NCBI GenBank assembly: GCA_025200525.1
Contig: CM045761.1
Coordinates: 138,944,223-139,008,222 of the forward strand
DNA length: 64,000 bases
DNA from: Camellia lanceoleosa
Taxonomy: Eukaryota > Streptophyta > Magnoliopsida > Ericales > Theaceae
Direction: 5' to 3'
The translations under genes and the position numbers were made by a program. Shown piece by piece: positions 32,256-59,270 of this stretch. Position 1 is the first letter of the stretch. Each line of letters starts with the position of its first letter. The notes beneath the pieces were generated by a model that was not told the origin of the DNA, did no database searches, and saw only the letters and a program-made list of their open reading frames with translations.

Positions 32256-32270
32256 ACCTTCCCCCTTAAA
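32256..32270 (-). promoter_or_regulatory. Tekay polypurine tract
   Basis: On the minus strand the sequence TTTAAGGGGGAAGGT lies directly before the 3' LTR start. This is the expected place and composition for the plus-strand DNA primer. Confidence 0.85.
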
Positions 32271-34640: not shown

Positions 34641-34649
34641 CTTAAGTTC

Positions 34650-36300: not shown

Positions 36301-36388
36301 GCCCATCGATAACAAGTGAGCTTGGCCTCTATTGACTCGCCCTAAGAACGAGCCAAGACGATCTTATGCCGCCACGCCTCCTCCTCTC

Positions 36389-37735: not shown

Positions 37736-38500
37736 TGTAACGCCCCCAAAATAATACAAATAATCCAACTCATAAGAGAAGTGAGAATAATAGAATCAAT
37801 ATACTTTCATTCATCAGAGTTCATATTACAAAAGATAATACATGCAATATACATTCATAAATGTTCATCCTGAATCTATAGCATGTAACACCAGTTAATA
37901 ACAGCAAAATAAATGCCCTACCAGCTTACATCTTTCCAAGACATTGCTTGGTTAAAACAAAAGGGAGTCATAAGCTCTGTATATATAAAGCCCTTGGCTT
38001 GAATAAACATTTAAACACTCGAACAACAAAATACAACCTCCAGCTCCTATGTCCTCCTGAGCTACGTCCTTGGAGGAAGCACGTCACCAATACTTGAAAA
38101 TAGTTTTCCAAGTAGGGTGAGCCAAAGCCCAGTAGAAACAGTCTATCACAGTATATGAGGTTTAACTAAGTTATAAGTGTCAGAAGTACATTCAATATTT
38201 ATGACAAACGCACATGTTTTACATGACTACAAGGTATCGATATTCACATCTCTATTTATTCCCATTTATTCATTTCAAGTTAATTCACTTCATTTCAATT
38301 CATAGGCCAAGTTTACAATTCTCCAAATAACCCAACTGAGACTGCATCTCAGTGGTTCTCAATTAACGTAACTCACACAAATACTTCAATCTTGCCATTT
38401 TACTGAAATTTCGTCCGCAGGATCGGCATCCATGTATACATATGATTTCGAGACTTTCAACCTGGAGACTCCAGCCAACTTAATTTTAATGGAGTCCATC
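37736..38500 (-). repeat. Tekay 5' LTR, inner part
   Basis: This part matches 30218-30985 of the left LTR. It is split at GGAGTCCATC by the nested Tat/Ogre-like element. The left LTR keeps the empty site (GGAGTCCATTCCCTATC). The remainder is at 58004-59265. Confidence 0.92.
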
Positions 38501-41500
38501 TGTAGACACCCCATTTTTGACCGTCCTTAAGACTTGGACGTCATCGCTTGAACACTCGGTGATTATCCATGTTTGTGTTTGTTTGGAGTTCCCGGAGTTC
38601 TCGGCTACGTGCCTTGCCTCAGGACCTCCGAACTTGACCGTTTTGTGTCTAGTTTTGCACCAAACACTTGTGCTTTGCCTTAGAGGGGCATGGAATGCCT
38701 TCTGATGCATCCCCACACACCACCGGCAGTGGCTAGAGGCCACCGGCTGGTTGTTGTTGCCACCGGCACTACATTGTGCCGATCGGCACTCTTTTTGGCA
38801 AAATGTCACTCTTTGCCGGCCGGACACTGTGCAGTTGCTTTATGAGATATTTTCAGACAGCTGTATAGTTTTGGTTCCCCTCCATACACGTGTATGGAGG
38901 GATGACCCTCTTGGTTAGCTTAGTTTGTAAGCTTTGCAAGATTTGCTTGCCTATAAGAGGACCACTCCTCTTCTTGGCTTAGGGTTACAAATTTTAGACA
39001 TTTTAGACAGACCAAGCTCTGGCTTTTAGGATAGATACACATCCTATCTCTCTTCTTCTCTCTTGTTTTGTACACTAGGTGTTTGTGTCTTATTATTGTT
39101 CACCAACACCTAGTGTTTCACCTTCCTCTTGGAACTGAGGTGCTAAGGGCTTGTTCTTAAAGTTCTTGACTAGTTTGGAGCTCAAGGAACCAACAACTCC
39201 AACCTTTGTGAAGGTGGTCTTCAAGGGTAACAAAACTTACTTTATTTACCCCATTCTTGCACTCCATTTTTGCCTAGTTTAAAACAGTTTTTGTGCTTAG
39301 TCTATAACACATAAAAGTTCTATTTTTTAAGCCTCTTTATTGTTTATTAAGAGTGTTTTGTGGTTTGAGCAAGTTCGACCACCCTTAGGCCTTGAAAAGG
39401 CCCATTTTTGTGCCATTTTGTGAGAGATCCGAGACTTTGGTGTTAGGATCTCTTCACCACTGAAATCTTGAGGGATTTCAGTGGTGAAGATGATGCCTTA
39501 GAGTCTCAAGAAGGAGAGGACCACCCCCTCTCCTTGATGTCCTTGAAAAGGACAAGATTTGGCTTCTTGAGGGAGCTTGTGCTTAAGTGTGTGTTGAGCA
39601 TGTTTGGTTTGTTTTTCATGCTTATATTGCCATGATATAACATGTTTCTAAGTTGGTTTTAGTACTCCTTGCATGTTTTGCATGGTTGCTTTGTAATGCC
39701 TCTTTGGTCCCTTAACATGCCTAGGTTGTTAGCCCTAGTTTGAGCATGCTTTAGGCTTAGACTCATGAATGTTTTATGCCTATTTTGACATGTTTTAGCT
39801 CTGTCCATAGTCATTTGGGTTGATCTTGGCATGCATTATATAGCCCCTTTGTATTTGGCTTGTTGGCCTCAAGAGCATGAGAGTGTAGCATGTCTTGCTT
39901 GCTTTATTTTTGATGGTTTGGAACCATTTAACATGCTATTTCAGTCCCTTTAGCATGCTTGTTCGATTGCCTTGCATGCCTCTTTAATGCCTTAAAAGCA
40001 TGTTGAATGCTCCATGTATCGGTCATGTTGCATGCCTTTGTGCTTAAGCCTCTTAAATGCCATCTAAGTAGCCATTTGGCTTTGTTTTAACATGCTAAAA
40101 CTCTGTTTTAGGTTGTTCAATGCATGCCATATTTGTTTTGCATAAGTGTAGTTCAATGCTTCCATGACTTGCCTCAAGTGTTGAACCTATGTTGCATGCA
40201 TTTGTTTATCTTGCTTAACATGATTTGGCATCATTTCATAGCATGATTTTTAGAGCCTAAATTGCATGCTAGTTGTCCATTGTTGTGCCCCTTTAAGTGT
40301 GCTTAAGGGTTGTTTGTTATGCTTAAGTGTTGGTGTCTTAACTTGTGCATGTGTGCATGTGTGTTTGGCCCTCATGATTTAGCATTTTGGCCACTGTTTT
40401 GAGCCTTTTTAGAGTTGCCCAATTCACGTCTAAGTCCATCCTCCATTTGATTTGCATGCTTGCTTTGTATGCTTACTTGCATGTTCGCATTGTATTGCCA
40501 TATTGCATACTAGTTGACATGTCTAGGATTGCATCATATTGGCATACATGCTAAGCCTCTTGAAGTAAAGCATGATGGAGGTTTGGCACCCTTGTTTGTT
40601 TGTTTGCATTACATGCATTTGAAATCAAAATTGCACTCTTGGTTCTTTGGGCCATCATGCATCGAAATGCGTGATTGGTGGTCCAAGAACCGAGGCACAT
40701 CTTCCTTTGAGTCAAAAACATGATAAGGAGTGTGTTTGGTGCATACATGCTTTGAATTACATTGCCATGCAAGTTGTGTCCTCTGCTGCTGTGAGTTGCA
40801 GGTTCTGCAGGCATTTTGTGCCGACCGGCACTGTTTAGTGCCGACCGTGATCTCTTGGAAGCGATGGATGAATTCAGTGCGGTGGCCACATCCTTCGGTG
40901 GTGTTCTACCATAGCGGTGGTGATCTCCAGTGCCAAGGAAGTATTCTGAAGTTTTGGCGATCTTGAGGAGGAAACAGAAAACAGAGGCAATCATGCATGG
41001 CGATGCGATTAGAAGCGAGTTAGGCGTGTGTTGCATCTTGCCCTCATCCCGAGGCGAATTACTGTTTAATTAGATTAATTATTTTATTTAATTAATTTAA
41101 TTAATTTGTAATATTTAATTAGCTTGCGTAGTTAATTAGTTACTCGGTTTTGTATATTCTTTTGGTCCCTCCGAGTGAGGGCATAATTGTAATAAGTGTG
41201 TGAGTGGGTGTATGTTTTCCAAACCCCATTTCTTTCTATCCCTTTTATTTACCCGCTTATGTTGGTAGATTAGGGCACGTTTATTTTAGCATACCTTATG
41301 CAATGCATGCGCATCCATGCATTTGTTTACATGCATCGGGCTCGGTACATCATACAAACTGCATTGTATTCTAAATTCCAACTTGAATACGTGCATCAAA
41401 TGATTGCATTTCACGTGCCATTTTAGGGTTAGCCGAGCCTACTCTAAATCGCATCCTTGCCTGTGTTGCATTAGCCACTTAACATGACCTAGGGACATGC

Positions 41501-42201
41501 ATGTCTGCTAACTAGTTTCTTGTTTTGGCGCGGAGTACGATGTAAGTATTTTACGCTTTAGCATACCACATGCGTGTGAATGCTGCCATAACAGTATGCT
41601 TACCATGCGGCTAAGTGCTTGTATGAGATAAACTGTTTGAATGCCTGTGGGTGGAGGTTGGATTGCTTGAGTTGGGAAAACTCATTGAAATCCGTGTTTT
41701 AGCCTACTTGCGAGTAGCAAATTCCAAAGCATTTTCAAAACGAACGGATATGCAATGTTTGTTTCCAAATTAGGCGATCTAGTCTATACTTGTTTCTTTG
41801 TCATAACATAGTAATTCTAGGCTAATAATTGGAATAAGAGCATGTAATGTTTTCAAAAACGGATATCACGGTTAGTAGAGGCGGTCTTGGACGGGCGAAG
41901 GGTGCTCATAGTGACCTTCCCGATCGTACCCAAGCTCGAGCCAAGACCACTTTGGTGATGAGGGACATGTGGCCTTGACCGAGTCGGGGTTTCCTAAATT
42001 TCCCATTTTAAAATATTTAGGTGGCGACTCATGTCGCAAAGCGATCCATGTTTGGCACTACTTTTCAAAACTGTTTTTCTTCAAAACGATTTGCGGTTGG
42101 ACTCTTTGGTTCAGATGAACCGACACAAAAGGAGTCCGAATCGTAGTGACCCCAATCTGAACAGGCAGGACTTAAACCCTCCCGATGCATCTGGGGGCGA
42201 C
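38501..42201 (+). repeat. 5' LTR of the PMD-carrying element
   Basis: It aligns end to end with 54217-57998. The first 2.3 kb differ by a few percent, mainly substitutions. The last 1.36 kb (40840-42201) carry dozens of 1-5 base losses relative to the 3' LTR, and the terminal ACGTCTACA is reduced. A TATA-like CCTATAAGAGG lies near 38951. Short open frames here (such as 40514-40723) recur in the 3' LTR and are not genes. Confidence 0.9.
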
Positions 42202-42215
42202 TGGCGACTCTGGGA
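42202..42215 (+). promoter_or_regulatory. Primer-binding site, arginine-tRNA type
   Basis: TGGCGACTCTGGGA directly follows the 5' LTR. A TGGCGACTC start is what Ogre elements use with tRNA-Arg. The second half is less certain. Confidence 0.7.
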
Positions 42216-42902
42216 TTTTAAAGAGCTTGACTCGAACTCGTGATATCTGTTTTGACTACACTTATGTGTTTCTTTGCATTGCATGTGCATTGGTGCGCCT
42301 AGGACACCGTGTTGGTCATCTGCTATTCTGGCGGTTTCTTTGGAGGCTTGTCTTGTCAAGGCATGTCCATAAGGTCGACGGTTCTTGAGCTCTGCAAGAT
42401 GGGGAACACAAACCCCGGTTTTACCTGGGCACCCTTTTCGACCATTCAACCTAGTGCATATCGAAATCCATAGTGACCATTCCAAACTAGGACAGGTTGC
42501 TTACCCGATATTAGGTTGTTTGAAACCGTTGCGTGCGTAGTGAAACCCTAGCTCTTGACAAAAATAGGACAGGGAAACCCTACCCCAACATAGGGGTGTA
42601 TTGGCTCTCTTTTACTTGCTATGTGCTTTGAAAGTGTATCTCTACAGGGAGTGCATATACCAGTTTGCAAGATTTGGATATCGAACGAGGGCACCGATGT
42701 TGTTGTGAATCAGTTATATCTGCGGGTATCGATTGATTTGATGAGTGATTCTGGGAGCAGTGTTGATAATAGAGCGATTGTTCGCTACACCGTGTTTGAT
42801 CTGTTTGAAATTTGAAATCTTGCTTGTTTTCCGTTTGATTCGAGATTCGGAGAGTTGATCCAGAACAGCTAGTGTCTTCTCCTTGCTGAGGCAGGACTAA
42901 AC
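42216..42902 (+). other. Untranslated leader of the PMD-carrying element
   Basis: Between primer site and gag there is no sustained open frame. The sequence contains CTAGGACAGGTTGC and AAAATAGGACAGGG phrases and no recognised domain. It would include the packaging signal of the element, but none can be pointed to. Confidence 0.5.
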
Positions 42903-43888
42903 ATGACGCAGAACTTAGAAGAGATTGTGGTCATGACGGCCGCGTTGAGTCAAGGAACCACCCTACAGATTAAAAGCTGTTGATATGCCGATCCACCAGT
43001 CGCTGCCGCACATCAATCTGACTCCTCAACTATATCAGCTCGTGAGCCCACCACATTTGAATTAATGGGAATGATAGGTGATCTTCAAAGATCCGTGGCG
43101 GATCTCGCCTATGGGATGTCTGTTTGCCGTCACCGCACCATATCTTGGGAGGCTTTATACCCCAGAGCCCCCCATCTTTGGGACGAATTGTAATTGAACT
43201 CACCAACCGGAGATGGCCTCCAACTATGGCAATGACGACAAACCAAGTTCTAGACGGTGAGGCCGAGACAAAGGTAAGATGAAGGCGAATCCGACCCTAT
43301 CGAACAAGCTCGTAGGCGAGAGAGGCTTTAAAGGGAATGAACAAGCAACAGATATCCGCAGTTACGACAAAAGCTGTGGAGGATGCTTTCCCTACTCTGC
43401 CTGAGGGCAGTTCCAGTCAATCAGAGAATCGGGATAGGCCTCGTCATGCCAAGATAGTTCTTCCCGCTCCCAGCCTTGCATCCGGAAAGGATCAGAAACC
43501 CAAGGCCGCACCCGCCGATCCGTTCGCTAGTGCATCTAGCAAGAGTGCTCAGACTCCAAAGTACCTGCCCCGGGGGCGCAGGGTCTTCCATGCTCTCTAC
43601 ATGCCATTGTCCAAGGCACTTCAAATCCTTGCCGAGAAGGGACACCTTAAACCTCTGGAGCCTCGGCCTCTCCCAAAGAATCTCCCCGCTACGCATGATG
43701 CTTCCCTGTACTATGCGTACCATCAGCAGACTGGCCATGCCATTGATAATTGCTTCCGCCTCCGTCATGAGGTACAAGACTTGATTGACAACGAGGTTAT
43801 CCTCCCACCCACCTCAGCGAAGTCCGTCACCCGCTCAGTTGTTGGATTTCGAGGACACAGATGCTGCAAGTATGTAATCGGAAGGTGA
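42903..43888 (+). pseudogene. Tat/Ogre-type gag remnant
   Basis: A frame from the ATG at 42903 (MTQNLEEIVVMTAALSQG) soon meets stops. A second frame, open from 43337 to 43888 (183 codons), holds the C-terminal gag block. Here FHALYMPLSKALQILAEKG is followed by HLKPLEPRPLPKN and then YYAYHQQTGHAIDNCFRLRH and EVQDLIDNEV. In Tat/Ogre gag the block CAYH..GH..C..L is a zinc-binding-like signature; its first cysteine is tyrosine here. Most of the N-terminal capsid region is missing. After 43888 pol should begin but does not. Confidence 0.75.
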
Positions 43889-44984
43889 ATCGCCTGCGGG
43901 CAGTGTCTGGTACATTTTTGGATGCGGCGTTTGGCACGCATTTTTGAGCACCTGCCAATACTAATTTTGTAAATCCTAACTTGGGTATCGAGTCAGTCTT
44001 TTGTTTTGTTTTTGAGTCTGTCTCTCTGTGTTGAGTCAGTCTTTTGCTTATAGAGTCTGTCTTGCTGTAACAAGTCAGTCCCTTTTGTATAGTATACCAG
44101 GTGATTTCGGGGTTGTTGCCTCAAACACCGTTTTGTCTTCCAAATAGTTGTTTTTGCTTTTTGAATTAGTTTCTGCCGAGGAGCCAGTTATGCCAACAAA
44201 TTTGAATGAAACAGCTGCGGCTATCATGGGCCGAATTTGTTGCTATTCGAGCCAGCCGTACCAGAGAATTCGGATGGAACGATAGTGCATTTCGCCTACA
44301 CTCTTGTGCCCTAAACATCGTCACAATGACCTAAGCTTTTCAGAAAAACCTTTTTCAAACACTGCGGTGATAAAAACAAAGAGGAAGGAATTCCTCGGGT
44401 TTTTGTAAATTTTTGATCATCTTGAGAGAAAGAGAGGCCTGCTAAGCCCATAATGAACGAAATCATGTTTGTTAGTGTGAGTACTGAGAAGGACCCTAGC
44501 TTTGATCCAGATTGGTCCCACACTATCTTCAGCGTGAGCGATTTGTCGCTTTCTTAAAAACTTTCAAAAAAATGTTTTGCGCGGTCCTGCAAAGACATGT
44601 GTGGAATCGCTCTTGAGATTGCGCAGCCTAGGATCGCTCTCAGCCTCGAGACTCGACCCCTCATTTTCGAACCTTGGACTCAAACTCAGAATGTTCAACG
44701 GTTAACTACAACGTGAGGCCTGTGAGACCAGATTCAAAGCAGTCCTCGAGCAAGAGGCACCAAAGTCAAACCAAGAAGATCGATCATCGAAGCCCCTCCC
44801 TCAAACTAGGGGCAAAGATCGAGAAGTCAAGAGCCGAAGATGAGTTCTCTGAATCAACACCACTCTCACGGATACGGATGGCACCAAAACCCTAAAACCA
44901 TTTGGCATGGTCTTGCTACACTTTTACCCTTTGAGAGGCTCGCTGGGCCGAAAACCGGGAAGGGCGACCCAGGCAAAAGTTAGA

Positions 44985-45140
44985 GCAAGCAAAAAAATAC
45001 ATACAAAAGAAAAAAAAAATACAAAAAAAGGAAGAACAAAGGAAGAAGAAAAAGAAAAGAAAAAGAAAAGAAGCAAAAGCCTAAAAGAAAAGAAAAGAAA
45101 AATGCAAAAGAGAAAAAAAAGAAGAAAAGAAAAACAAAGC
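44985..45140. repeat. Purine-rich low-complexity run
   Basis: AAAGAAAAG-type sequence with almost no pyrimidines on the + strand. The lysine-rich open frame across it is a composition artefact. Confidence 0.8.
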
Positions 45141-45544
45141 TCGCAAGGTCGAAAACCTGCAACAGGCGCCTTGGCAAAAATTAGAGCCTAAACAGTGAAG
45201 GTTAAAATACCCGAGTGTACCTTAACCGGAACTACGTAAGGCTTGATTCCCATGTTTGGGATACGTAGGCAACTTCATCCTGAAGTCCAGCCCCCAACGC
45301 TTCCATAGCGTCTCAGTCCATGTCATGGTTTTGATCACTCGTGCCTCCTCCGAGTCCAATGTCTCGATCGCAGCAACCTAGGGCTACGTGATTAACTTCC
45401 TCTTGAAGTCCAAACCACCAACACCTTCCAGGTGACTGTGTCCATATATTGATTCAAACCGTTCAAACCGTCTTCGTCTCCTCCGCGCCCGAGGATCCGA
45501 TCATCGTCAAGAAAAACTGGCTTACAACATGCCGCGGCATCATC

Positions 45545-45672
45545 CAAACAAGGGGCAACTTTCCGTTGCCATCCATTGCCATAAGTTGCCCTAAGTTACC
45601 ATCCAAACCAGGGGCAACTTTCCGTTGCCTTTATCCCCCTTTAAGCCAGGGGCAATTTTCCATTGCCTCCGA
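45545..45672. repeat. Minisatellite of GGGGCAACTTTCCGTTGCC
   Basis: Three copies (about 45550, 45608 and 45651) lie in CCA-A-CC-rich spacing. Each copy is a hairpin-prone GGCAACTTTCCGTTGCC, with GGCAAC and GTTGCC as arms. Confidence 0.75.
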
Positions 45673-46666
45673 TCCGAGGTTGCATATCTCGAGGGTAAGT
45701 TCTATGCTCGTTTGAGCATTGACTGTTTGCAAAAATAGTTTTTGAAAATTTTCACTGAGGTTGACTTATTTTCTCGAAAACTGTTTTATTTTCAAAATTG
45801 GACCATGTTTGGACCCAAAAGGAGAATTTTCAGTGCTCATAGCCTGACTTGCATGATTTCAAATCAAAAATTGAATAAGTGTGCTCATCTAACTCTCATC
45901 TTTGATCAAAACTGTTTAAAAAAAAAAAAAAACAACAAAAAATGGTCAAAATGACGAACTAGGGGCACGATTAAGTCAGGTCCTCTGTCTTCCCCCCGTT
46001 AATATGCTTTGCCAACAGGGCGCTCTATCCGCCAGAAGGAATAGCCGTGAGCTAACAGCGTTGGGTGTGAACCCGCGACTTCCTATTCATCTGTCATTCA
46101 CCACTCTGGGAAGGGATGCAAAATGAGAGAATAAAGAATAGAGAGGAGTAAGTTGAGAGAAAAGTGAGAAAAGAGTTTTGAGAGAAAAACCGAGCCTGAG
46201 GGTCGAGTGATGTGAGTATCACAAATAAAAAAGGGTGGGAAATAATACCCGGAGGAATTGGCTTCTCGAGATCTGAGGTCCTTGTGTAAACATGTCTGTG
46301 TGCCGTGTCTTTTGATTTGTCGACCTTGATTTTTGCTTTGAGTCTTTTCCAAGTGTGTCTCGTTGTGTTAGGTCGTGTGCCTTTTGTTTCTTTGTTTGAG
46401 TCTGTCTCGCCGTGTTCTGTGTTAGGCTCAATACCCCGGTTGAAAACCCATCCTCTTCCAAAAGGTAATCACTTGTGCTCAGAATGCTGTGTCATTCTCT
46501 ACATCCGTGCAAAGCAAGAGAAGGAAAGGGAAAATTTGGGACATCCGAGTGTGTTTCAACCTGGCACGTGTCGACTTTGTCCGTCTGATCCGTCAGATTG
46601 GGGCTATTTGTTTGGGGTTTGCTGTGTGCAGAATGAACCAAATGCTGCGTTATGGGCTAAATGCAG

Positions 46667-46727
46667 ATCAACCCCCAGGAGATCAATCCCCAGCAGATCA
46701 ATCCCCAGCAGATTAGTCCCTAGCAGA
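46667..46727. repeat. Short tandem repeat AGATCAATCCCCAGC
   Basis: Four degenerate 15-17-bp copies in a row inside the element's non-coding region. Confidence 0.7.
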
Positions 46728-47374
46728 GTATGGGTTGTGTGCTCGGATTGAGCAGTGATTTGTATGAGCTGTTTTGCTGTTTAGTCGGTTGGTTATCTGA
46801 TTAGTACAGTGCAAGTGTTCAATTGTCAAACAACAGATCAATATCATTTACATTTGAGGTGTAATGTGATGCAATGCAGTGTAAAGTACGAAAGATGCAG
46901 ATATGTGCAGATATAACATTCTTTTTTAGATAAAAAAGTTTGTTCCATTTCATAATCTTTTCAAGTACATAAGTTTTAAGTAAAGCAAAATCTGCTTGCG
47001 GCAGTACACAGTACTCTATCTACCAAAAAGAGAAAAGTACAAGAAAAGAAAATAAAAGAAAAATAGCAGAAGTCTGTAATCGTCATCAATGGCCTCGCGC
47101 CGGGGGATCCGTCCTCGCCCTCTTCTGGCGAAGCACAGAGCATCGTCGAAGTGTCATTGTCGGGCCGAGCCAGCTGCCCGGCCTCCTCCTCGAGGCCTCG
47201 CCTCCGACTCGCCATCCTGGCTGGAGCTGCGATTGCTCCCCACATGGCCACGCCCCCTGCGGTGCGGGGAATATCCTGCCATCCCGAGTAGAAATGGGAG
47301 GTCCAGATGGGCGCCGCCACCCACGAGGAATCGGGAAGGAGGTGAAAAGTACAAAAGGCAAATGTCAAGACACA

Positions 47375-47545
47375 TGAAGCGGTTTATCGGTCTGCGAATC
47401 ACCGTGAGCGGTTTATCGGTCACGAGAATCACGATGGCGATTTATCGTCACGAGAATCGTGGCGGTTGAAAGCAGTAGAGTCACGATGTATATGAATCTG
47501 ATGTATGAATGCCGTGAGCGATTAATCGGTCTGAGAATGTAGTAT
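47375..47545. repeat. Degenerate repeat of GGTTTATCGGTC
   Basis: Four imperfect copies of CGGTTTATCGGTC..GAGAATC-type sequence at about 47381, 47410, 47438 and 47518, between exon 5 and the possible last PMD exon. Confidence 0.55.
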
Positions 47546-49624
47546 ATGAATCTGATGTGCCAAGGGCCGTGAAACGATTTACGGATGTTGTGTCATGCAC
47601 CAGATTATGCGAAGCAGTTTGTATATGGTTTGAAGCTATGTCAGAGAAAACGTACCGGAAGGCCGTAGAAGGCTAGGAACTCGAACGTCCGCTGCAACAT
47701 CCCTGCCATGGAGGCATTCAGCTCCAATGACTGCCGGGTGTACTCAGAGGAAGCCTGCAAAAGTATTAGATACATCAATATTCTGTGGAATATCGAATGA
47801 ACTGAACTGAAATGACAATGCAAGATGCAGAAATAAAGTGGTACATACCGGAGGCAAGTCGGGGATACCGACAAACTCATGACCCGTAGGGAGGAGCAAA
47901 GGGATCGGTAGGTCTCCCCACTCGCCTCAGATGTCAGCGTGGTAGGCAGAGCGGGCCAGCCCGTCCCTCGTCCCCTCTGCACTCCCCTCCTGCCACGAGC
48001 TCGAGCTCTCTGTGACAATCCCCCTCCTGCTCCCACCTCTGCCCTAGCCGCCGGCGCCGCAGATCTCTCTGGGTCAGCTCAGCGACCACCACTCAGCGGC
48101 CGCATGATGAAGGTCCGGACGTACTCTGAGTAATCGCCCTCGCCTCTGAAGCTGCCTGCCTCCCAGCCGATGGTGTAGTCCGCCATCTGCTCAGCGGTGA
48201 AACGCTCGGTGTCCCTCATATGCTCAGGAGGATGCACCGGGACTATCTGCTCAGGTAACCCTGAGGTCTGACGCAAGAAGCGCTCACCCAGGTACCAAGC
48301 CCGACAGACCGGGCCCTCTAGCAAAATCCGGTAACGCGAGGTCTCGATCGCGTCGGCAAACCGATCCCGCACCATCGCTGGCAGAGGAGCCCATGGCTGC
48401 CAGGTGATCTGAAATTGAAATACAGTTTATTGCCTACTGGTATTGCAAATATACAGTGAAAAAGTGAAGTTTAAATGAACTGCAAGTAAAACATACCTCG
48501 GCAGAGGTGATGGTGTCGAAGAATCGACGGAAGAAACTGAAAGTCTCCCGCGGCCGCCGTGTGCACCTCCCGTCATAACGGCGTGAGAAGGGAATGACCA
48601 GCGGAGTCTCCGTCTCCGGTACTGGCTCCAGCCTGGGAAAGTAGGCGTAGACCCACAACTGCAAGACAGATGTCAGTATGATTATCAGATACAGCAGAAT
48701 ACAGAGTAAAGCAGAAATAGCAGAGCCGTGTGTTGTGCAGTGTATTGAGCAGAGTGTCTGATGTGAGCGATTATGCAGTGAACATTGTCGATAGAGTAAA
48801 GCAGGAGTATGTGTGTGTCGTGTATACGATTATCTGACAAGTATAAAGCAGGACTACGATGTGTGCAATGTGCAGTCTGAAAAGTCTGTAACATAAATGT
48901 AAAAGCAGAGGGGAAGACATACCTCCCAAGCTCGCCAAGAACCTCACAAACAGCTGTCACGCCGGAAACGAGCTCATATAGTCAGAGAGAGTGGCGAGCC
49001 GCGCCCAAGTCATAACGCGAAGATGTCGGGACGTCCACCAAGGTAGCGAGAGGCACGTGTTCGCCGGTCGGCGAATAGGGTGGTCCTCAGCAAAAACATC
49101 GAAGCCGCATATCTTGCTCTCTGGCCACCTCGGTCGCCAGCTGCGTCAACAAGAAGAGGCGCACACTGCGCACTCGAATCGCACCTCGAACCAAGAATAG
49201 CGGACAAAGCCTGGACGTGCAAGAGGCGGAGCCGCGCCAAGTAAGTGGATCTGAGCGGCGGTCCACTCATCCATGTCGGTGTCGAAGGGGATCGGATCAC
49301 CCCCTACCCCGATGCCGGTGAGCACCGAGAAATCGTAAGGGGTCATCGTCATGTCCCCCGCCGCGGATAGGTGAAATGAATCGGTGGTGTCCCACCACCT
49401 CTCTGCCAGGGCGGCTAAAAGAGGCCTGCAGGCAGTAAGTCGGGTCAGACCCCTGCAGAAGGAACCGAAGCCCGCCTCATCCACGATGTATCGGACCGCC
49501 TCGGGAAGCTCCGAGTACCAATCTCGAGCCGCAACATTCCCATACCCGCGGATGGTATGGGAATCTACCTATTTACAAACAAATGGTTGCAAAGCAATAT
49601 GAAATGTACAGTTCTGAGGAAACA

Positions 49625-50035
49625 TGTTAAAGTCGATACAAATCTAGCATGCGTGCACGTTTTTCAGATTCAAACAGAAACCGGGTGCCGGTGTGCTTAC
49701 AGTAAACTACAATATGTGATGCGTCAGTGTGTTTTTGAGTAGTGCAGTGTAAACATGGTGCACGTGTGCACATTTTTCAGATTCAAGCAGATATCGGGTT
49801 CTGATGTACGATGGGTGGACTACGGCTGTGGCGTGTCGGCTCTGTGGATCAGTGTAAATATAGCATGCGTGCAAGTTTTCAAAATTCAAATGGGTACCAG
49901 GTGCCGGTATGTTTCAGTGAATTGTCAATGAGTGATGTTACAGCGTGTCTATGTGATTCAGTGCGAGTCTAGCATGCGTGCGAGTTTTCAGATTCAAACA
50001 AGTACCGGGTATCGGTGAATTTGCAGTAAAATACG
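49625..50035. repeat. Minisatellite in PMD intron 1
   Basis: Four diverged copies contain AGCATGCGTGCACG, TTTTCAGATTCAAAC and ACCGGGTGCCGGTGT, spaced 100-130 bp. They lie wholly within the 668-bp first intron (49569-50236). Confidence 0.7.
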
Positions 50036-50799
50036 GTGTGCCGTGTATATGGGTGATTAAGGCTAGTGCAGTGTGTATGCGCGTGTCGGTCCTAAAATAG
50101 ATATCAGTTGTGAGTTTGTCTACGATCAACTACAGTATATCAGTGTATCAGAGCTAAGCAATTAAGGGTTATGTCGGCTATGGCGATTGGATTCTGATTC
50201 TACATTACAGAAAGTAAAGCAGAGCAGAACGGTTACCTCGGAAGCGCCGAATGAGAGATGAGAGGCAGGCTCGCGTAGCAGAAGCTCTGGGTCCAATGCC
50301 CTGTCGAAACTCCTGAACTGGCGAAGTCCATTGGGTGGTAGCACGTGGATCGCCGGGCGATAGGTCACCGGATCGAACGGGCGCTCACTCAGCGGGAAGA
50401 GCTCAACCCCGGGATCCATCTCGTGATCCGGGGGAGTCCCGACATGTGGAACATCGTCAGCCATGGTAGTGGTAGTGAAAAAATAGCCGGAAAGGAAAAC
50501 CGGGGCGGAATGCGAAAAGTCAACTGGAAAAGTCAACCCCGAGCGGGCCGAAAATGGCCGGAACGGCCGGAAGATGAAAATACACGGAAATGTAGAGAAA
50601 ATCGAGGGGAACAGGTCCCGAAAAGGCGAAAATAGCAAAGGAGATCCCGAAATGAGATTTCGATCAGGTGGAAATGTCTGAAACGCGAAGAATATCGCGA
50701 ATCCGTTTGTAAAATGGTGCGAAAACATGAGGAAATCGACGAAAAATCGAGAGAACAAAGCTCTAGAGGGAGAGAGTGAAGGATTTCGGCGGAAGAGGA

Positions 50800-50850
50800 A
50801 GTGGAAAATAGGGTTTAGAAGCCCTATTTTATAAAGCTTGAGGTGAAATG
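50800..50850 (-). promoter_or_regulatory. TATA promoter of the PMD gene
   Basis: On the minus strand TTTATAAAATAGGG (TATA at 50826-50835) is followed by a CT-rich leader of about 340 bases to the ATG at 50464. Leader pieces such as CACTCTCTCCCTCTAGAG are usual for plant genes. An imperfect inverted repeat (AAAATAGGGTTT with AAGCCCTATTTT, 50808-50832) overlaps the TATA region. Confidence 0.6.
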
Positions 50851-50869
50851 GCAGATCTGCCCCCGATCA

Positions 50870-51110
50870 GGCATTTTCTGCCGGTCGGCACTATTTTGTG
50901 CCGGTCGGCACATTATTGTGCCGGTGGAGAAGTTTAGGCAGCCGGTGGCAACCGGTGACCTCCCCACCCAGCCGGTGGTGTTCCCAAAGCCTTGTTTAGG
51001 CCATGTGAGTAGTTTTTGGTCTTCATAGCTCAAGAAAGTGCAAGAAAATGCACCCCCGATGCTCAACCGGCCTCCGTTTTGACTTCGGACCGTGTCTACT
51101 GTGCGTAACA
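50870..51110. repeat. LTR-like GCCGGTCGGCAC segment
   Basis: GTGCCGGTCGGCAC and GCCGGTGG motifs resemble those in the LTRs of this element (for example 38755-38825 and 56560-56660). They lie just upstream of the PMD promoter. This could be an LTR piece of a relative, or sequence that arose by duplication within the element. Confidence 0.45.
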
Positions 51111-51289
51111 CTCAAATTCAAGCAAAGACTATATCCTTTTTGTATCCTTTTCTCTTTTATAAGATTCAAAAGTTGCCCCGCGTGCGTCACGCGCATCCAT
51201 CACATTGTCCGGCGCATCGTATCGCGCCATCTTGCACGTCCCTTGCGACTTGCACCGTTTTGCATTGTCGTGTGGCATGCGTGTCATAC

Positions 51290-51540
51290 TTTCTCATTTT
51301 GCATTTCATTTTGATCCACGTGAGGTGTACTACCTCACGTGCTTCATTTTGCATTTCATTTTGATCCACGTGAGGTGTACTACCTCACGTGCTTCATCTT
51401 GCATTTCATTTTGATTCACGTGAGGTGTACTACCTCACGTGCTTCATTTTGCATTTCATTTTGATCCACGTAAGGTGTACTACCCCACGTGCTTCACTTT
51501 GCATTTCGTTTTGATCCATGTGAGGCGTACTACCTCGTGT
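51290..51540. repeat. Five-copy 50-bp array of a G-box palindrome
   Basis: Each 50-bp unit is CTTCATTTTGCATTTCATTT, then TGATC, then an inverted repeat with arms CACGTGAGGT and ACCTCACGTG around GTACT. Copies start at about 51291, 51341, 51391, 51441 and 51491; later copies carry a few changes. Each good unit has two CACGTG cores, the G-box bound by plant bZIP and bHLH factors. The array is 450-700 bp upstream of the PMD TATA box. Confidence 0.85.
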
Positions 51541-51653
51541 GCTTCATCCTGCATTTTGTTTTGCATTCTTGCATCTATGAGGTATGCATGCCTCGTCTTG
51601 TATCTCATTTTGTGCTTCTTTGCGCTGACCTGCGCGCCTCATTGTTTTCCACC

Positions 51654-52730
51654 GGTCTGGCGAGACCTTAAACACGTGCGGTCTAGGAGACCTTAAATCC
51701 TTTGAAGGTGCAAAACCTTTGGCGCATGCATTGTCATGTATCATCATCTCAACAGCAGCGCATTGCCGCGCATTTTGAAACCACGCCACCCGGGTCTGGT
51801 GAGACCTTAAACACGCACGGTCTAGGAGACCTTAAATCCTCGGGAGGTGCAAGACCTTCGGTGCATTAAGGTGTGCACCTCATCGCATTCGGCATGCATC
51901 ATATCGCACTGTCTTGTGCACTCGCGTTGTTTAATGCATCGCGCCGTTTGGCGCACCCTCATTGCACTTCATTTTCCATCCTTTGAGGCACGCGTACCTC
52001 ATTGCACTTCTTTTTCCATCTTTTGAGACACGCACGTCTTGTTTACCCCATTTGCATCCGCATGCGTGTCTCATTTGCATCGCATTCGCTTAAAGTGTTG
52101 TGTAATCATTGCCCTGGGTCTGGCGAGACCTTAAACACGCACGGTCTAGGAGACCTTAAATCCTCGGGAGGTGCAAAACCTTCGGTGCATTAAGGTGTGT
52201 ACCTCATCGCATTTGGCATGCATTGTATCGCACTGTTTTGTGCACTCGCGTTGTCTTACACCTCGCGCTGTCTTGTGCACCACATCTCAATTCATGCATT
52301 GCCCCCCCGGGTCTGGCGAGACCTTAAACACGCACGGTCTAGGAGACCTTAAATCCTCGAGAGGTGCAAAACCTTCGGTGCATTTGGCGTGCACTCCATC
52401 ACACTATTGTGCACACCTCATTGCATTTGGCGTGCACCTCATCGCACTATTTTGCACCCCTCATTGCATTTGGCATGCACTTCATCGCGTTGTTTCGCGC
52501 ACCTCATCAGTTGCCCCCCGGGTCTGGCGAGACCTTAAACACGCACGGTCTAGGAGACCTTGAATCCTCGGAGGGTGCAAGACCTTCACTACTGTTGCCG
52601 CATCTCAATTCATGCATTGTCATGCATTCGTGAAGCCGCGCGTTGCCGCGCATTTCAAAAATAACATGCATTGTCATGCATTGCATCCTGGTCTAGGAGA
52701 CCTTAAATCCTCTGAAGATGCAATTCCTTC
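51654..52730. repeat. Interspersed repeat with GGTCT..AGACC hairpins
   Basis: Units of about 75 bp contain GGTCTGGCGAGACCTTAAAC, then GGTCTAGGAGACCTTAAATC, then GAGGTGCAAGACCTTCGG. They start near 51654, 51793, 52117, 52310 and 52521, with a partial unit at 52690. Both GGTCT..AGACC parts can form small hairpins. Spacers are rich in GCATTTGGCGTGCACCTCAT-like phrases. Confidence 0.8.
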
Positions 52731-54202
52731 GGTGTTTGTCGTGCCCGAACGACTTTCGGTGGTCTGGTAAAGCCACCTGTCTGTGTTTGCGGTGAGTTCC
52801 TAGGAGACCAATGGGGATGGGGAAAACTAGAGTTTGAACGGCTTATGCCTAGAACGCAAAGGTTTGAGATTTCCGAGACTAAAGTCTGGTTTAAATACCC
52901 AGGGGGTGTACCCTCGGCTTGAAATCTGTATGGAAGCCCCATAGGTTGAAGCGGCATGTTTACGCCTCAATTCTGGATACCGAACCAACCTAGTATATCG
53001 CCCTGTTGGGAGAATAGGAAAAATCGCAATCGCAGCCATTGCATCATACTGCATTGTCATGCATCATCTTAACTATTGCATATGTCATGCATCTCAAACA
53101 AAAAAAAAAAAAAAAAAAAACATATTGCACATGTCATGCATTCCAAATTCAAAATTCAAAAAACAAAAAAAAAAAGAACATGCATTCGTCATGCATCATC
53201 ATTGTAGTATAGTGCATATGTCATGCATTTTCTGTAGTTGCATGCATTCACTGCATCATCCTCCATTTATGGCTTGCGCCTTTCCTTGTTGAGCTTGGTC
53301 TGGTATGTGCCCTTACTTTTCACGTCGAAGCATGGTTCATGTGCATCGCGCCTATTCCTTGATGAACTTGGTTTGAGGTTGCGGCACCTTTTCTGTGTTA
53401 GACATGGCTTGTATGTGTGCATGCCCTTCCTAAGCGAGATACGGTTTGGCCCGCACGCCATAATCGCATATTACATTGTAGTGAAATTATTGCATCCAGC
53501 ATTAGGATCATTGTTCTTTCCTCAGCGGGTCGTCACCCCACTTATGTCAATCCACCCAATACTTGTTCTTGTGTCCGTCTACATCACTCATAGTTCAGAC
53601 ATCGTTCTATGGTAGACGGACTCGTTACTTCCATCAATCTACTTGACATTTGTGTGGTTTCGAACCGCTCCGGTTTGAATCATGATTCAATTGCTCTGCA
53701 TGTAGTTTGCATTGTTTCAATTGCATTGCATTATCATTTGCATTATTCATACATCATTTTGTATATATTGCATATCATTTTGCATTTCGCATTGCCATGC
53801 ATATGGCTAACAATATTGTACCTGTTAAGTTTGCTTTCTTTGCAGGCACGATATTGTATGTACGGCTCATTTGAGGTCGATGCAACCGGACGAGCCGCAC
53901 AGGTATTGTATCCTCCGCGTGAGACGTACTGAGAATTGCATAATTCTCTTACATCCTTTCTGCATTATAGTGTAGATTGGCATATGCTAGCTTATAACTA
54001 TTGCATGCGTGCTTCATTACAGCTTTCTTTGCATAATCATAAGTTATGCTCGGCTTCTTGCATCATCTTGCATTTTGCCCCTGCCTTCGGGCGCATACCT
54101 TATTTGTCTTGCATGTTTGTCCAAGTCTTCGACCTTGTCAAAAATGGGTCGTCTCTGGGCTTTGACATTCACTCCCGTCATTGTTATGACTTTCGAGTTC
54201 TG
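52731..54202. other. Non-coding 3' region of the PMD-carrying element
   Basis: The sequence is rich in TGCATTGTCATGCAT phrases and A-runs (53100-53120, 53158-53175). A perfect hairpin GAGAATT-GCAT-AATTCTC lies at 53931-53948. The stretch TTTGACATTCACT..GTCATTGTTATGACTTTCGAG (54155-54200) is conserved just before the LTR of the second Tat/Ogre-like element (61530-61585). No sustained gene is visible. Confidence 0.5.
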
Positions 54203-54216
54203 TCAAAGAGGGCAAC
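54203..54216 (+). promoter_or_regulatory. Polypurine tract of the PMD-carrying element
   Basis: TCAAAGAGGGCAAC directly precedes the 3' LTR. The second element has CCAAAGAGGGGAAAT at the same place (61587-61601). Confidence 0.75.
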
Positions 54217-57200
54217 TATAGACACCCCATTTTTGACCGTCCTCAAGACTTGGACGTCACCGCTTGAATACTCGGTGATTATCCATGTTTGTGTTTGTTT
54301 GGAATTCCCGGAGTTCTCGGCTACGTGCCTTGCCTCAGGACCTCTGAACTTGACCGTTTTGTGTCAGGTTTTGCACCAAACACTTGTGCTTTGCCTTAGA
54401 GGGGCATGGAATGCCTTCTGATGCATCCCCACACACCACCGGCAGTGGCTAGAGGCCACCGGCTGGTTGTTGTTGCCACCGGCACTATAATTTGCCGGTC
54501 GGCACTCTTTTTGGCAAAATGGCACTCTTTGCCGGCCGGACACTGTGCAGTTACTTTATGAGATATTTTCAGACAGCTGTATAGTTTTGGTTCCCCTCCA
54601 TACACGTGTATGGAGGGATGACCCTCTTGGTTAGCTTAGCTTGTAAGCTTTGCAAGCTTTGCTTGCCTATAAGAGGACCACTCCTCTTCTTGGCTTAGGG
54701 TTACAAATTTTAGACATTTTAGACAGACCAAGCTCTGGTTTTTAGGGTTAGGATAGATACACATCCTATCTCTCTTCTTCTCTCTTGTTTTGTACACTAG
54801 GTGTTTGTGTCTTATTATTGTTCACCAACACCTAGTGTTTCACCTTCCTCTTGGAACTGAGGTGCTAAGGGCTTGTTCTTGAAGTTCTTGACTGGTTTGG
54901 AGCTCAAGGAACCAACAACTCCAACCTTTGTGAAGGTGGTCTTCAAGGGTAACAAAACTTACTTTATTTACCCCATTCTTGCACTCCATTTTTGCCTAGT
55001 TTAAAATAGTTTTTGTGCTTAGTCTATAACACATAAAAGTTCTATTTTTTAAGCCTCTTTATTGTTTATTAAGAGTGTTTTGTGGTTTGAGCAAGTTCGA
55101 CCACCCTTAGGCCTTGAAAAGGCCCATTTTTGTGCCATTTTGTGAGAGATCCGAGACTTTGGTGTTAGGATCTCTTCACCACTGAAATCTTGAGGGATTT
55201 CAATGGTGAAGATGATGCCTTAGATTCTCAAGAAGGAGAGGACCACCCCCTCTCCTTGATGTCCTTAAAAAGGACAAGATTTGGCTTCTTGAGGGAGCTT
55301 GTGCTTAAGTGTGTGTTGAGCATGTTTGGTTTGTTTTTCATGCTTATATTGCCATGATATAACATGTTTCTAAGTTGGTTTTAGTACTCCTTGCATGTTT
55401 TGCATGGTTGCTTTGTAATGCCTCTTTGGTCCCTTAACATGCCTAGGTTGTTAGCCCTAGTTTGAGCATGCTTTAGGCTTAGACTCATGAATGTTTTATG
55501 CCTATTTTGACATGTTTTAGCTCTGTCCATAGTCATTTGGGTTGATCTTGGCATGCATTATATAGCCCCTTTGTATTTGGCTTGTTGGCCTCAAGAGCAT
55601 GAGAGTGTAGCATGTCTTGCTTGCTTTATTTTTGATGGTTTGGAACCATTTAACATGCTATTTCAGTCCCTTTAGCATGCTTGTTCGATTGCCTTGCATG
55701 CCTCTTTAATGCTTTAAAAGCATGTGTTGAATGCTCTATGTATTGGTCATGTTGCATGCCTTTGTGCTCAAGCCTCTTAGATGCCATCTAAGTAGCCATT
55801 TGGCTTTGTTTTAACATGCTAAAACTCTGTTTTAGGTTGTTCAATGCATGCCATATTTGTTTCGCATAAGTGTAGTTCAATGCTTCCATGACTTGCCTCA
55901 AGTGTTGAACCTATGTTGCATGCATTTGTTTATCTTGCTTAACATGATTTGGCATCATTTCATAGCATGATTTTCAGAGCCTAAATTGCATGCTAGTTGT
56001 CCATTGTTGTGCCCCTTTAAGTGTGCTTAAGGGTTGTTTGTTATGCTTAAGTGTTGGTGCCTTAACTTGTGCATGTGTGCATGTGTGTTTGGCCCTCATG
56101 ATTTAGCATTTTGGCCACTGTTTTGAGCCTTTTTAGAGTTGCCCAATTCACGTCTAAGTCCATCCTCCATTTGATTTGCATGCTTGCCTTGTATGCTTGC
56201 TTGCCTTGTATGCTTACTTGCATGTTCGCATTGTATTGCCATATTGCATACTAGTTGACATGTCTAGGATTGCATCATATTGGCATACATGCTAAGCCTC
56301 TTGAAGTAAAGAATGATGGAGGTTTGGCACCCTTGTTTGTTTGTTTGCATTACATGCATTTGAAATCAAAATTGCACTCTTGGTTCTTTGGGCCATCATG
56401 CATCGAAATGCGTGATTGGTGGTCCAAGAACCGAGGCACATCTTCCTTTGAGTCAAAAACATGATAAGGAGTGTGTTTGGTGCATACATGCTTTGAATTA
56501 CATTGCCATGCAAGTTGTGTCCTCTGCTGCTGTGAGTTGCAGGTTCTGCAGGCATTTTGTGCCGACCGGCACTGTTTAGTGCCGACCGACAGTCTACTGG
56601 AAGCCGATGGATGAATTCAGTGCCGGTGGCCACATCCTTCAGCCGGTGGTGTTCTACCATAGCCGGTGGTGATCTCCAGTGCCCAAGGAAGTATTCCTGA
56701 AGTTTTGGCAGTCTTCAGAGGAGGGAAGCAGGGAAAACAGAGGCAATCATGCATGGCAGTGCGATTCCGAGCGAGTTCCGGGCGTGTGATGCATCTTGCC
56801 CTCATCCCGAGGCGATTTACTGTTTAATTAGATTAATTATTTTATTTAATTAATTTAATTAATTTGTAATATTTAATTAGCTTGCGTAGTTAATTAGTTA
56901 CTCGGTTTTGTATATTCTTTTGGTCCCTCCGAGTGAGGGCGCAAAGCTGTAATAAGTGTGTGTGAGTGGGTGTATGTTTTCCAAACCCCCATTTCTTTCT
57001 ATCCCTTTTATTTACCCGCTTATGTTGGTAGATTAGGGCACGTTTATTCTTAGCATACCTTATGCAATGCATGCGTGCATCCATGCATTTGTTTACATGC
57101 ATCGGGCTCGGTACATCATACAAACTGCATTGTATTCTAAATTCCAACTTGAATACGTGCATCAAATGATTGCATTTCACGTGCCATTTTAGGGTTAGCC

Positions 57201-57998
57201 GAGCCTACTCTAAATCGCATCCTTGCCTGTGTTGCATTAGCCACTTAACATGACCTAGGGACATGCATGTCTGCTAACTAGTTTATTGTTTTGGCGCGGA
57301 GTACGATGTAAGTATTTTACGCTTTAGCATACCACATGCGTGTGAATGTTGCCATAACAGTATGCTTACCATGCGGCTAAGTGCTTGTATGAGATAAACT
57401 GTTTGAATGCCTGTGGGTGGAGGTTGGATTGCTTGAGTTGGAAAAACTCATTGAAATCCGTGTTTTAGCCTACTTGCGAGTAGCAAATTCCAAAGCATTT
57501 TCAAAACGAACGGATATGCAATGTTTGTTTCCAAATTAGGCGATCTAGTCTATACTTGTTTGCTGTGCGCATAACATAGTAATTCTAGGCTAATAATTGG
57601 AATAAGAGCATGTAATGTTTTCAAAAACGGATATCACGGTTAGTAGAGGCCGGTCTTCGGACCGGGCGAAAGGGGGTGCTCATAGCTGACCTTCCCCGAT
57701 CGTACCCAAGCTCCCGAGCCAAGACCACTTTGGTGATGACGGACATGTGGCCTTCGGCACCGAGTCAGGGTTTCCTAAATTTCCCATTTTAAATATTTAG
57801 GTGGCGACTCAGAATCCGCAAAGCGATCCATGTTTGGCACTACTTTTCAAAATCTGTTTTTCTTCAAAACGATTTGTCGGATTTGGACTCTTTGGTTCAG
57901 ATTTAGAACCGACACAAAAGGGAGTCCGAACTGTAGTGACCCCAATACGAACGGAACGGGACTTAAACCCTCCCGGATGCGTTCGGGGGACGTCTACA
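54217..57998 (+). repeat. 3' LTR of the PMD-carrying element
   Basis: It starts TATAGACACCCC (G-to-A at the second base compared with TGTAGAC) and ends GGGGGACGTCTACA. At 3,782 bp it appears more complete than the 5' LTR. A TATA-like CCTATAAGAGG lies near 54666. It is followed by the CCATC target duplication. Confidence 0.92.
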
Positions 57999-58003
57999 CC
58001 ATC

Positions 58004-59265
58004 CCCTATCTCCTCCCAAAACATGGAGAACATAGAGTACATCTCCTTTCTTCTCCTAAAACGTTATACATATACAATGTATTTAAAAGTACCATCATAT
58101 TCAATGACACAATTAAATGATTAGTTTCAATTCACCTAATTCCCATGCAATTTCTACAACAATCACAGCTATCCTCCATTGATAACCCAATACAGATATT
58201 TCTAAACATATATACAATCTTTATAACAGATAATTCATCACATTTCCATAGGTGAGTGATTAAACAAATCCAACTACAGCATTCATTCATACATCCTCCC
58301 AATTTCACATTTCTCATACCAATTCCATTATTTATACAAAATAATTATTCCTGACATTTTAGGGCAAAACTCCCTATTTTTCCAAAAATTGATCGAAAAG
58401 TCAAAATCAACTATTTTAACACAAGATAACCTCATATTCAAACCCCATGATCAATTATATAACACCACATAGAAACCCCTCTTTTTAAACTTGAATCCAA
58501 ACCCTAGGTTTACCCAAATACTCCCAAAATTTCACCATTTCTGCATAACAACAAATAACTAGGTTAAAGATCATATTAAGGTGTAGAATATCCCTACCTC
58601 AAGTGTAGATGCCCAAAGGAGAAGTGGAGAAACCTCAAAGACGCCCAAACTCGACTTTATTTGGATCAAATCGAAGCCCATAGGATGCTCTATCTTTTTA
58701 TCATAGGGAGTATGGTAGAGAGACCCTTAGGTCCTAGGGGATTTGTAGAGAGAAGTTGAATTTTAGAGAGAGAAGGAGCTGATCTAGGGTTTTGAGTGAA
58801 AAGACACCAAAAAGTGATATAAAAATGAGTTCCTGCGAACTGATATACGCGAGGCTCGCTCGAGTGAAAGAGTTGTCACTCAAGCAACCAGACATAATAA
58901 GTGTCCTCGCTCGAGCATAAAATACGAATTCCCAGAAGTTTTGCAGACAGAAGACCGTCGCTTAAGCGCAAAAGTTCTTGCTCGAGCGAACAACAGCACC
59001 CTCTTAGAATCACTGCAGGCCTGAGAAAATACTAGAAGATCACAAAGCTCACTTAAGCGCAAGATTCTTCACTCGAGCGAAGAAACAAAAATCTGGGCAA
59101 CATCTATCTAGACCAACTAGCAACTAACCTATTCCAAACATGCCCAAAACATCCCAATACTCAAACTCAAAGAGTGGAAGGAAAAAAGACATGGATAACA
59201 ATATTAAACCATGAAACCCAAGTCCGGGATGCAACAATAGTCGGGTCAAAATTGAGATCTCTATA
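58004..59265 (-). repeat. Tekay 5' LTR, outer part
   Basis: This continues the LTR interrupted at 38500 and matches 30990-32255 of the left LTR, including the CTCGAGCGA-rich tract (58855-59080). It ends CTCTATA before the GAACT target duplication (59266-59270). Confidence 0.92.
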
Positions 59266-59270
59266 GAACT

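What the first reader, a model, noticed from the sequence alone, without database searches (positions are those of the whole stretch)
38501..57998. LTR retroelement with pol replaced by an antisense plant-mobile-domain gene
The element has complete termini, a target duplication, a primer site, gag remnants and a polypurine tract, but no pol domain. Where pol should be it has a multi-exon PMD gene on the other strand. PMD proteins (MAIN, MAIL1) act in silencing of transposons and genome stability in Arabidopsis, and PMD domains are known inside some plant transposons. A mobile element spreading such a gene could be a way to interfere with host silencing; that last point is inference.
Basis: partly seen in the sequence, partly recalled or inferred. 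Interest (0 to 1): 0.9.

Follow-up and report, generated by a model that had tools for sequence, protein, structure and literature searches.

The report
Pol-less retroelement family carrying PMD gene
An abundant family of "jumping genes" in a camellia has lost the genes it needs to copy itself but has kept, on its opposite strand, a relative of plant genes that silence jumping genes, and evolution has protected that gene's protein sequence, so it probably does something for the element.

Summary
In detail: a complete LTR element, 38501-58000, with 5-bp target duplication CCATC and no pol found, carries an antisense plant-mobile-domain (PMD) gene of at least four exons. It is a family, not a chance insertion: two other copies are collinear across the interior, and three copies (one of those two included) have their own perfect 5-bp duplications. 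The host is Camellia lanceoleosa (contig lengths). PMD codons are under purifying selection in copies chosen without looking at PMD (dN/dS 0.17-0.25 in exons 1-3; wrong frames 0.91-2.17). A capsid-less mini-Gag (306-382 aa in 123 of 123 scored matches) is also constrained. "Pol replaced by PMD" is wrong: a relative with gag and reverse transcriptase has the same antisense PMD further on, and a second full-gag copy has it where predicted. This family lost capsid and pol but kept PMD. PMD in Ogre elements, antisense genes in Retand, and pol-less families with selected genes (Athila) are in print; the combination, with protein-level selection on an antisense intron-bearing PMD, is a new variant. 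A counter-silencing role is untested. The window's own copy is broken.

The parts
38496..38500 (.). target-site duplication CCATC, left copy
   Evidence: sequence
38501..42201 (+). 5' LTR (starts TGTAGACACC; its last bases before the PBS are shortened in this copy)
   Evidence: L041 shows TCTACA plus a short spacer before its PBS
42202..42214 (+). primer binding site, TGGCGACTCTGGG
   Evidence: sequence; aligned with eight other copies, of which two (L002, L006) vary at it; that it fits tRNA-Arg is recalled, the Ogre/tRNA-Arg link is stated in PMC9289625 (passages)
42820..43888 (+). capsid-less mini-Gag gene, frame-shifted in this copy; longest open frame left 43316-43888
   Evidence: left border is read from the selection scan only
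44932..45292 (+). patches shared with the region after integrase of a pol-bearing relative (pol was lost upstream of here)
46106..46249 (+). second stretch shared with the region after integrase of pol-bearing relatives (L074, L077)
48082..48408 (-). PMD exon 4; a premature stop at 48079-48081 in this copy
48497..48658 (-). PMD exon 3
48923..49568 (-). PMD exon 2, main PMD domain; about 20 bases short and frame-shifted in this copy
50237..50464 (-). PMD exon 1 with start codon at 50464
50822..50833 (-). TATAAA-containing site about 370 bases before the PMD start: candidate antisense promoter
   Evidence: T[A/T]TAAAATAGGG in 33 of 37 copies
51294..52595 (.). tandem repeats upstream of the PMD gene (50-base unit x5.4 at 51294-51563, about 80-base repeats 51649-52595)
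54206..54216 (+). polypurine-like tract AAGAGGGCAAC
   Evidence: sequence
54217..58000 (+). 3' LTR, ends GTCTACA
58001..58005 (.). target-site duplication CCATC, right copy
   Evidence: sequence

Best explanation
This is one decayed copy of an old, abundant non-autonomous LTR retrotransposon family, probably of the Tat/Ogre type, in Camellia lanceoleosa. An ancestor with gag, pol and, downstream of pol, an antisense intron-bearing PMD gene lost the capsid part of gag and pol. Shown: the family's architecture, its target duplications, the lack of RT in the three copies read through, a relative with gag and RT and the same antisense gene, and purifying selection on the PMD protein and on the Gag remnant. 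Inferred: copies are packaged and reverse-transcribed in trans by pol-bearing relatives. The PMD gene is transcribed from its own antisense promoter; its introns survive retrotransposition because in the genomic RNA they are reverse complements and cannot be spliced. Its protein is a nuclear accessory factor that helps the element that encodes it, most likely by acting on the host pathway in which MAIN/MAIL1 (PMD proteins) work, or on the element's own transcription.
For: Family: two copies (C10, C8) collinear across the interior; 9 of 12 copies picked by 5' DNA alone have PMD sequence at the expected distance, two of them interrupted; 13 of 123 mini-Gag rows have one of 150 PMD rows 5.4-6.4 kb downstream, all on the opposite strand, where 0.37 co-locations within 30 kb are expected by chance. 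Mobility: 5-bp duplications CCATC, ATGTG, GTATC, CCATG in 4 of 5 copies looked at. Selection on PMD: window plus 7 copies not picked by PMD, dN/dS exon 1 0.17, exon 2 0.25, exon 3 0.24, wrong frames 0.91-2.17; 37 copies, internal branches 0.166, terminal 0.311, wrong frames 1.1-1.7. Gag remnant 0.32, wrong frames 1.0-1.1. Splice donors kept in 36, 36 and 34 of 37 copies, first acceptor in 34. Gag- and RT-bearing relative with antisense PMD; second full-gag copy, at the predicted place.
Against: No RNA or protein data. 3 of 12 copies picked by 5' DNA have no PMD at the expected place, so PMD is not needed in every copy that moved. Many copies are broken: exon 2 is open in 13 of 30 protein-picked copies. 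Only one pol-bearing copy was available for the tree, so a single origin of the pol-less form is not proved, and one copy (L054) groups with it. LTR and PBS identity between the pol-bearing and pol-less forms was not tested. The strict acceptor pattern before exon 3 fits only 18 of 37. A TATA box proper is in 14 of 37.
Confidence: 0.75

Rival explanations
1. Selection acts only in pol-bearing relatives; pol-less copies are frequent deletion or template-switch products that carry PMD as a passenger.
For: Pol-bearing relatives are abundant (121 RT rows scored of 109,742 first-look candidates, open frames up to 2,547 aa) and two full-gag copies carry the same gene. The Athila paper reports recombination between pol-bearing and pol-less families (passages).
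Against: Scored mini-Gag matches share the same capsid-less form (123 of 123 rows are frames of 306-382 aa), and six of seven other 5' loci align across it at 78.5-82.2% DNA identity, the seventh (L005) ending before it, which fits an old shared deletion; PMD diverges more from the pol-bearing copy (dS 1.0-1.4) than among pol-less copies (dS 0.54-0.70).
Confidence: 0.2
2. The useful product is RNA: antisense PMD transcripts pair with the sense genomic RNA and feed siRNAs, a self-limiting or host-imposed control; the protein is irrelevant.
For: In tea, 175 PHAS loci lie at PMD genes, of 476 21-nt and 43 24-nt PHAS loci in all (PMC10673657, passages), and tea PMD proteins are close relatives. 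Vicient and Casacuberta propose the dsRNA role for antisense ORFs (PMC7264820, passages).
Against: Differences concentrate at third codon positions and dN/dS is 0.17-0.25 in the PMD frame against 0.91 or more in the two others; an RNA role would not protect codons. Both roles can coexist.
Confidence: 0.1
3. A host MAIN-like gene captured by chance in one element copy.
For: Gene-like features: four or more exons, start codon and splice sites; relatives are annotated MAIN-LIKE 2 or MAINTENANCE OF MERISTEMS.
Against: 150 scored matches of the exon at 90-100% identity in the genome, same place and strand in independent insertions, 5-bp duplications in other copies.
Confidence: 0.02

Closest known systems
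Ogre (Tat clade) elements with a PMD extra ORF (Neumann et al. 2019, PMC6317226, passages)
   Same: PMD (PF10536) reported in 57% of Ogre elements; a pol-bearing relative here (L074) has RT, an RVT_3-type RNase H and integrase
   Different: This family has no pol and no capsid; orientation, introns and selection of the PMD gene are not given in the passages I saw
Retand/Grande antisense ORFs between pol and 3' LTR (PMC11963269, PMC7264820, passages)
   Same: Antisense gene between pol and 3' LTR, tandem repeats in that region, Grande gene23 with its own promoter
   Different: Those encode TRP28 or other proteins, not PMD in the passages seen; here pol is absent and the gene has introns
Pol-less Athila families (PMC2410132, passages)
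   Same: Whole families without pol whose remaining ORFs are under purifying selection
   Different: There gag and env; here a capsid-less Gag and an antisense PMD
RLG_Quinta/RLG_Cereba pair of wheat (PMC11302176, passages)
   Same: Non-autonomous family that keeps a Gag ORF and is thought to be mobilised by a pol-bearing relative
   Different: Quinta encodes Gag plus a DUF1 and targets centromeres; no PMD mentioned in the passages seen
MAIN/MAIL1 of Arabidopsis (PMC7156037, PMC5418596; search listings with abstract starts)
   Same: PMD proteins; the host proteins act in transposon silencing
   Different: Here the gene is repeated and lies inside a transposon

Membership tests
LTR retrotransposon | paired LTRs, PBS, PPT and target-site duplication | tested here: met
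   duplications in three other copies
Tat/Ogre lineage | RT-based phylogenetic placement | not tested
   the element has no RT; no reference Ogre RT was at hand
Tat/Ogre lineage | second RNase H (aRH) between RH and integrase (Neumann 2019, passages) | tested here: inconclusive
   absent in the element; in the pol-bearing relative L074 an RVT_3 match (E 7.6e-9) precedes H2C2 and rve
Tat/Ogre lineage | PBS fitting tRNA-Arg | tested here: inconclusive
   TGGCGACTC read in the window and six of eight other copies, varied in two; the tRNA itself was not looked up
Tat/Ogre lineage | PMD extra ORF (57% of Ogre elements) | tested here: met
Retand lineage | antisense TRP28 (PF04195) ORF | tested here: inconclusive
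   no PF04195 in 16 window ORFs scanned; other ORFs not scanned
non-autonomous (pol-less) LTR family | no RT/INT in the family's copies | tested here: met
   no RT and no match to pol pieces in the window's interior, L039-L040 and L041-L042, with positive controls; other copies not read through
non-autonomous (pol-less) LTR family | pol-bearing relative in the same genome | tested here: met
non-autonomous (pol-less) LTR family | same LTR ends and PBS as the helper | not tested
host MAIN/MAIL gene | single or low copy number outside transposons | tested here: not met
   150 of 150 scored exon matches at 90-100% identity

The most novel reading that the evidence does not exclude
The family keeps the antisense PMD as a counter-silencing protein: a retrotransposon-borne decoy of the host MAIN/MAIL1-PP7L machinery, kept even after pol was lost because it must protect the very copy that encodes it; the many PMD-derived phased siRNAs of tea would then be the host's answer aimed at this gene.
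Probability: 0.2. Interest if true: 0.85.

Novelty: new variant of a known kind. Interest (0 to 1): 0.55.

Why it matters
It gives codon-level evidence, which I did not see in print in my searches, that an antisense PMD gene inside a retrotransposon is selected as a protein, and in a family that has lost pol. That makes a standing question (why do Tat elements carry PMD genes?) directly testable, offers a source for the PMD phased-siRNA loci of tea, and warns that some Camellia proteins named MAIN-LIKE or MAINTENANCE OF MERISTEMS are probably transposon genes.

Tried and rejected
Rejected: chance insertion of a host gene; a longer form with 26 kb between 5' end and PMD on C255, which turned out to be a family copy nested in another copy's PMD gene; a perfect TATA box in every copy (14 TATAAAAT, 19 TTTAAAAT, 4 without, of 37). 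Led nowhere: no solved structure matches a close tea relative of the PMD protein (P0083, 0 matches); a genome-wide pairing of helper-type PMD with RT rows, because the genome search did not complete (15 tries); a pattern count of copies (not completed). No copy number is claimed: first-look candidates (9,446 for the 5' stretch, 20,713 for the PMD exon, 45,556 for mini-Gag) are unscored; scored rows are 40, 150 and 123, the best ones only. By my count of the listing, 78 of the 123 mini-Gag rows have no stop inside and 45 have one to three. Dropped before counts: of 12 copies picked by 5' DNA, 5 were left out of the selection test (L050 and L056 interrupted, L052, L053, L055 without PMD there); the 30 copies were picked by exon-2 similarity, so exon 2 there is biased; exon 4 gave no dS. 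Besides the 13 close pairs, one search lists three opposite-strand pairs at other distances and two same-strand pairs. Of four full-gag copies followed, two (C3, C5) show the antisense PMD; in C8 a reversed family LTR, and in C6 a neighbour with a PMD on the same strand as that gag (40% identity), lies where it should be.
Full report
Where it is. The window lies in a 3.0-Gb plant genome at C4:138944223-139008222. Proteins named Camellia lanceoleosa in public sources lie on contigs of exactly 186,582,824, 207,072,543 and 162,822,108 bases, the lengths of C7, C4 and C13 here, so the host is taken to be Camellia lanceoleosa (Theaceae).

The element. It runs from 38501 to 58000 with CCATC on both sides. 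The LTRs are 3.7-3.8 kb and differ by K2P 0.027 over 3,700 aligned bases, about 1-2 million years with rates that I recall. Inside are a PBS-like TGGCGACTC, a Gag remnant on the plus strand, a PMD gene on the minus strand, tandem repeats upstream of that gene, and a purine-rich tract. No RT is found with two different pol queries, each of which finds other elements.

It is a mobile family. Copies at C10:70.71 Mb and C8:135.95 Mb align with the window from LTR through Gag remnant and PMD to the other LTR, pieces over 1 kb at 77-88% identity; in the C8 copy the 3' LTR is interrupted by a reversed family LTR. Perfect 5-bp duplications flank copies on C10 (ATGTG), C2 (GTATC) and C3 (CCATG); for a fifth copy, on C14, the left end was not found. 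Of 12 copies picked only by similarity to the first 600 internal bases, 9 have PMD sequence at the expected distance, two of these interrupted, and 3 do not. Among 123 mini-Gag and 150 PMD matches, 13 pairs lie 5.4-6.4 kb apart, all with PMD downstream and on the other strand; five more pairs within 30 kb lie at other distances, three on opposite strands and two, both cross-pairs of neighbouring copies on C11, on the same strand.

The antisense gene. Other copies show an open exon 2 (222 codons in L026) flanked by conserved donor and acceptor sites; exons 1 to 4 can be joined in phase 0. The protein so read from one natural copy matches the PMD profile at E 2.2e-32, positions 17-312 of 347. 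A T[A/T]TAAAATAGGG motif lies about 370 bases before the start codon in 33 of 37 copies, which suggests a promoter; this is sequence evidence only.

Selection. In the window plus seven copies whose PMD was not used to choose them, pooled dN/dS is 0.17 (exon 1), 0.25 (exon 2), 0.24 (exon 3) and 0.35 (part of exon 4); the two wrong frames give 0.91-2.17. In 30 copies picked by similarity of exon 2 (the window included), the unpicked exons 1 and 3 give 0.10 and 0.20. On a tree of 37 copies internal branches give 0.166 and terminal ones 0.311, wrong frames 1.1-1.7. The C-terminal Gag remnant in nine copies gives 0.32, wrong frames 1.0-1.1. Single copies decay after insertion: exon 2 is open in 13 of 30.

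The Gag remnant. In the copy L039 it is a 325-aa frame; in the genome 123 of 123 scored matches, the best of 45,556 candidates, have frames of 306-382 aa, some with internal stops, and none is a long gag-pol frame. No Pfam family matches it. Only its last third aligns with a full Camellia Gag that has the capsid domain PF03732. So the capsid part is gone and the nucleocapsid-like end kept.

Where pol went. One full Camellia Gag (P0053) finds 77 scored matches in the genome. Downstream of one (C8:97.09 Mb) lie RT, an RVT_3 RNase H, zinc-binding and core integrase matches, then stretches shared with window 44932-45292 and 46106-46249. At C3:204.96 Mb a full gag is followed by an RT 85% identical to that one (frame 1,025 aa; its integrase was not read) and then, collinear with window 46106-50464, by an antisense PMD at 59-67% identity in which more than half of exon 2 is not matched. 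For the C5:41.05 Mb copy the shared stretch predicted where the PMD should lie; one further kilobase read there holds it on the minus strand at 43-58% identity; its RT was not read. In the other two copies followed, a reversed family LTR (C8) or a neighbour with a same-strand PMD (C6) lies at that place. PMD therefore did not replace pol.

Age and spread. In a tree of 31 of the 120 listed PMD relatives plus L026, rooted on two Rhododendron proteins (37-38% identical to the query), proteins of C. sinensis, C. lanceoleosa and C. fascicularis interleave in several supported clades. So the gene family probably diversified before these species split. True host MAIN/MAIL1 orthologues were not identified for this tree.

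How it probably works (inference from here on). Pol-bearing relatives supply RT and integrase in trans; the mini-Gag may help RNA enter particles. The antisense gene keeps introns because the genomic RNA is read from the other strand. A gene that helps all relatives equally would be expected to decay in a pol-less family, so its conservation argues for a benefit to the copy that encodes it. PMD proteins of Arabidopsis work in transposon silencing (abstract starts of PMC5418596 and PMC7156037 in the listing; also stated in PMC10673657), so action on that pathway is the favoured guess. In tea, 175 PHAS loci lie at PMD genes, of 476 21-nt and 43 24-nt loci in all (passages of PMC10673657); convergent sense and antisense transcripts of this family could explain them, which I could not test.

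Against what is known. PMD in Ogre (PMC6317226), PMD as the most frequent non-canonical domain of plant Gypsy elements (PMC9289625), antisense genes in Retand and Grande, pol-less Athila families with gag and env under purifying selection and Quinta/Cereba are in print; of all these papers I saw passages only. In my searches of the held library I saw no report of a pol-less family with a selected antisense PMD gene; most subscription journals are missing there, and Steinbauerova et al. 2011, known to me from citations and recall, was not read.

Noticed in passing
window 59355-60674 (+): ORFs with a CCHC-like motif (CGKLGHYENKC) that recall a caulimovirid coat protein; no Pfam match in three ORFs. 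Resemblance is from memory; described only.
   Followed up: partly
window 33942-36739 (-): Broken Gypsy element with RVP_2 protease and RNase H matches; translated frames from about 31001-32261 are 72-74% identical to about 58031-59271, just right of the element.
   Followed up: partly
G000:C255:182800-208236 (L043-L045): A family copy inserted into the PMD gene of another family copy.
   Followed up: yes
public Camellia proteins, e.g. P0089, P0095, P0097: Proteins named MAIN-LIKE 2 or MAINTENANCE OF MERISTEMS in C. lanceoleosa are 81-88% identical over 84% of the element's PMD protein: probably transposon genes annotated as host silencing genes.
   Followed up: partly
about 440-590 bases before the PMD start (window about 50904-51054): The upstream stretch is as conserved as exon 2 (0.915 against 0.908 majority share); inverted CCGGCAC..GTGCCG motifs lie at its lower edge: possible regulatory element.
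   Followed up: no
L052, L055 (C6:133.78 Mb, C13:83.64 Mb): Copies with the family's 5' end but sequence from around the start of the 3' LTR where PMD should be: possibly shorter derivatives without PMD.
   Followed up: no
C11:37.29-37.31 Mb: Two family copies in opposite orientation, their PMD exons about 12 kb apart, seen from the paired rows.
   Followed up: no
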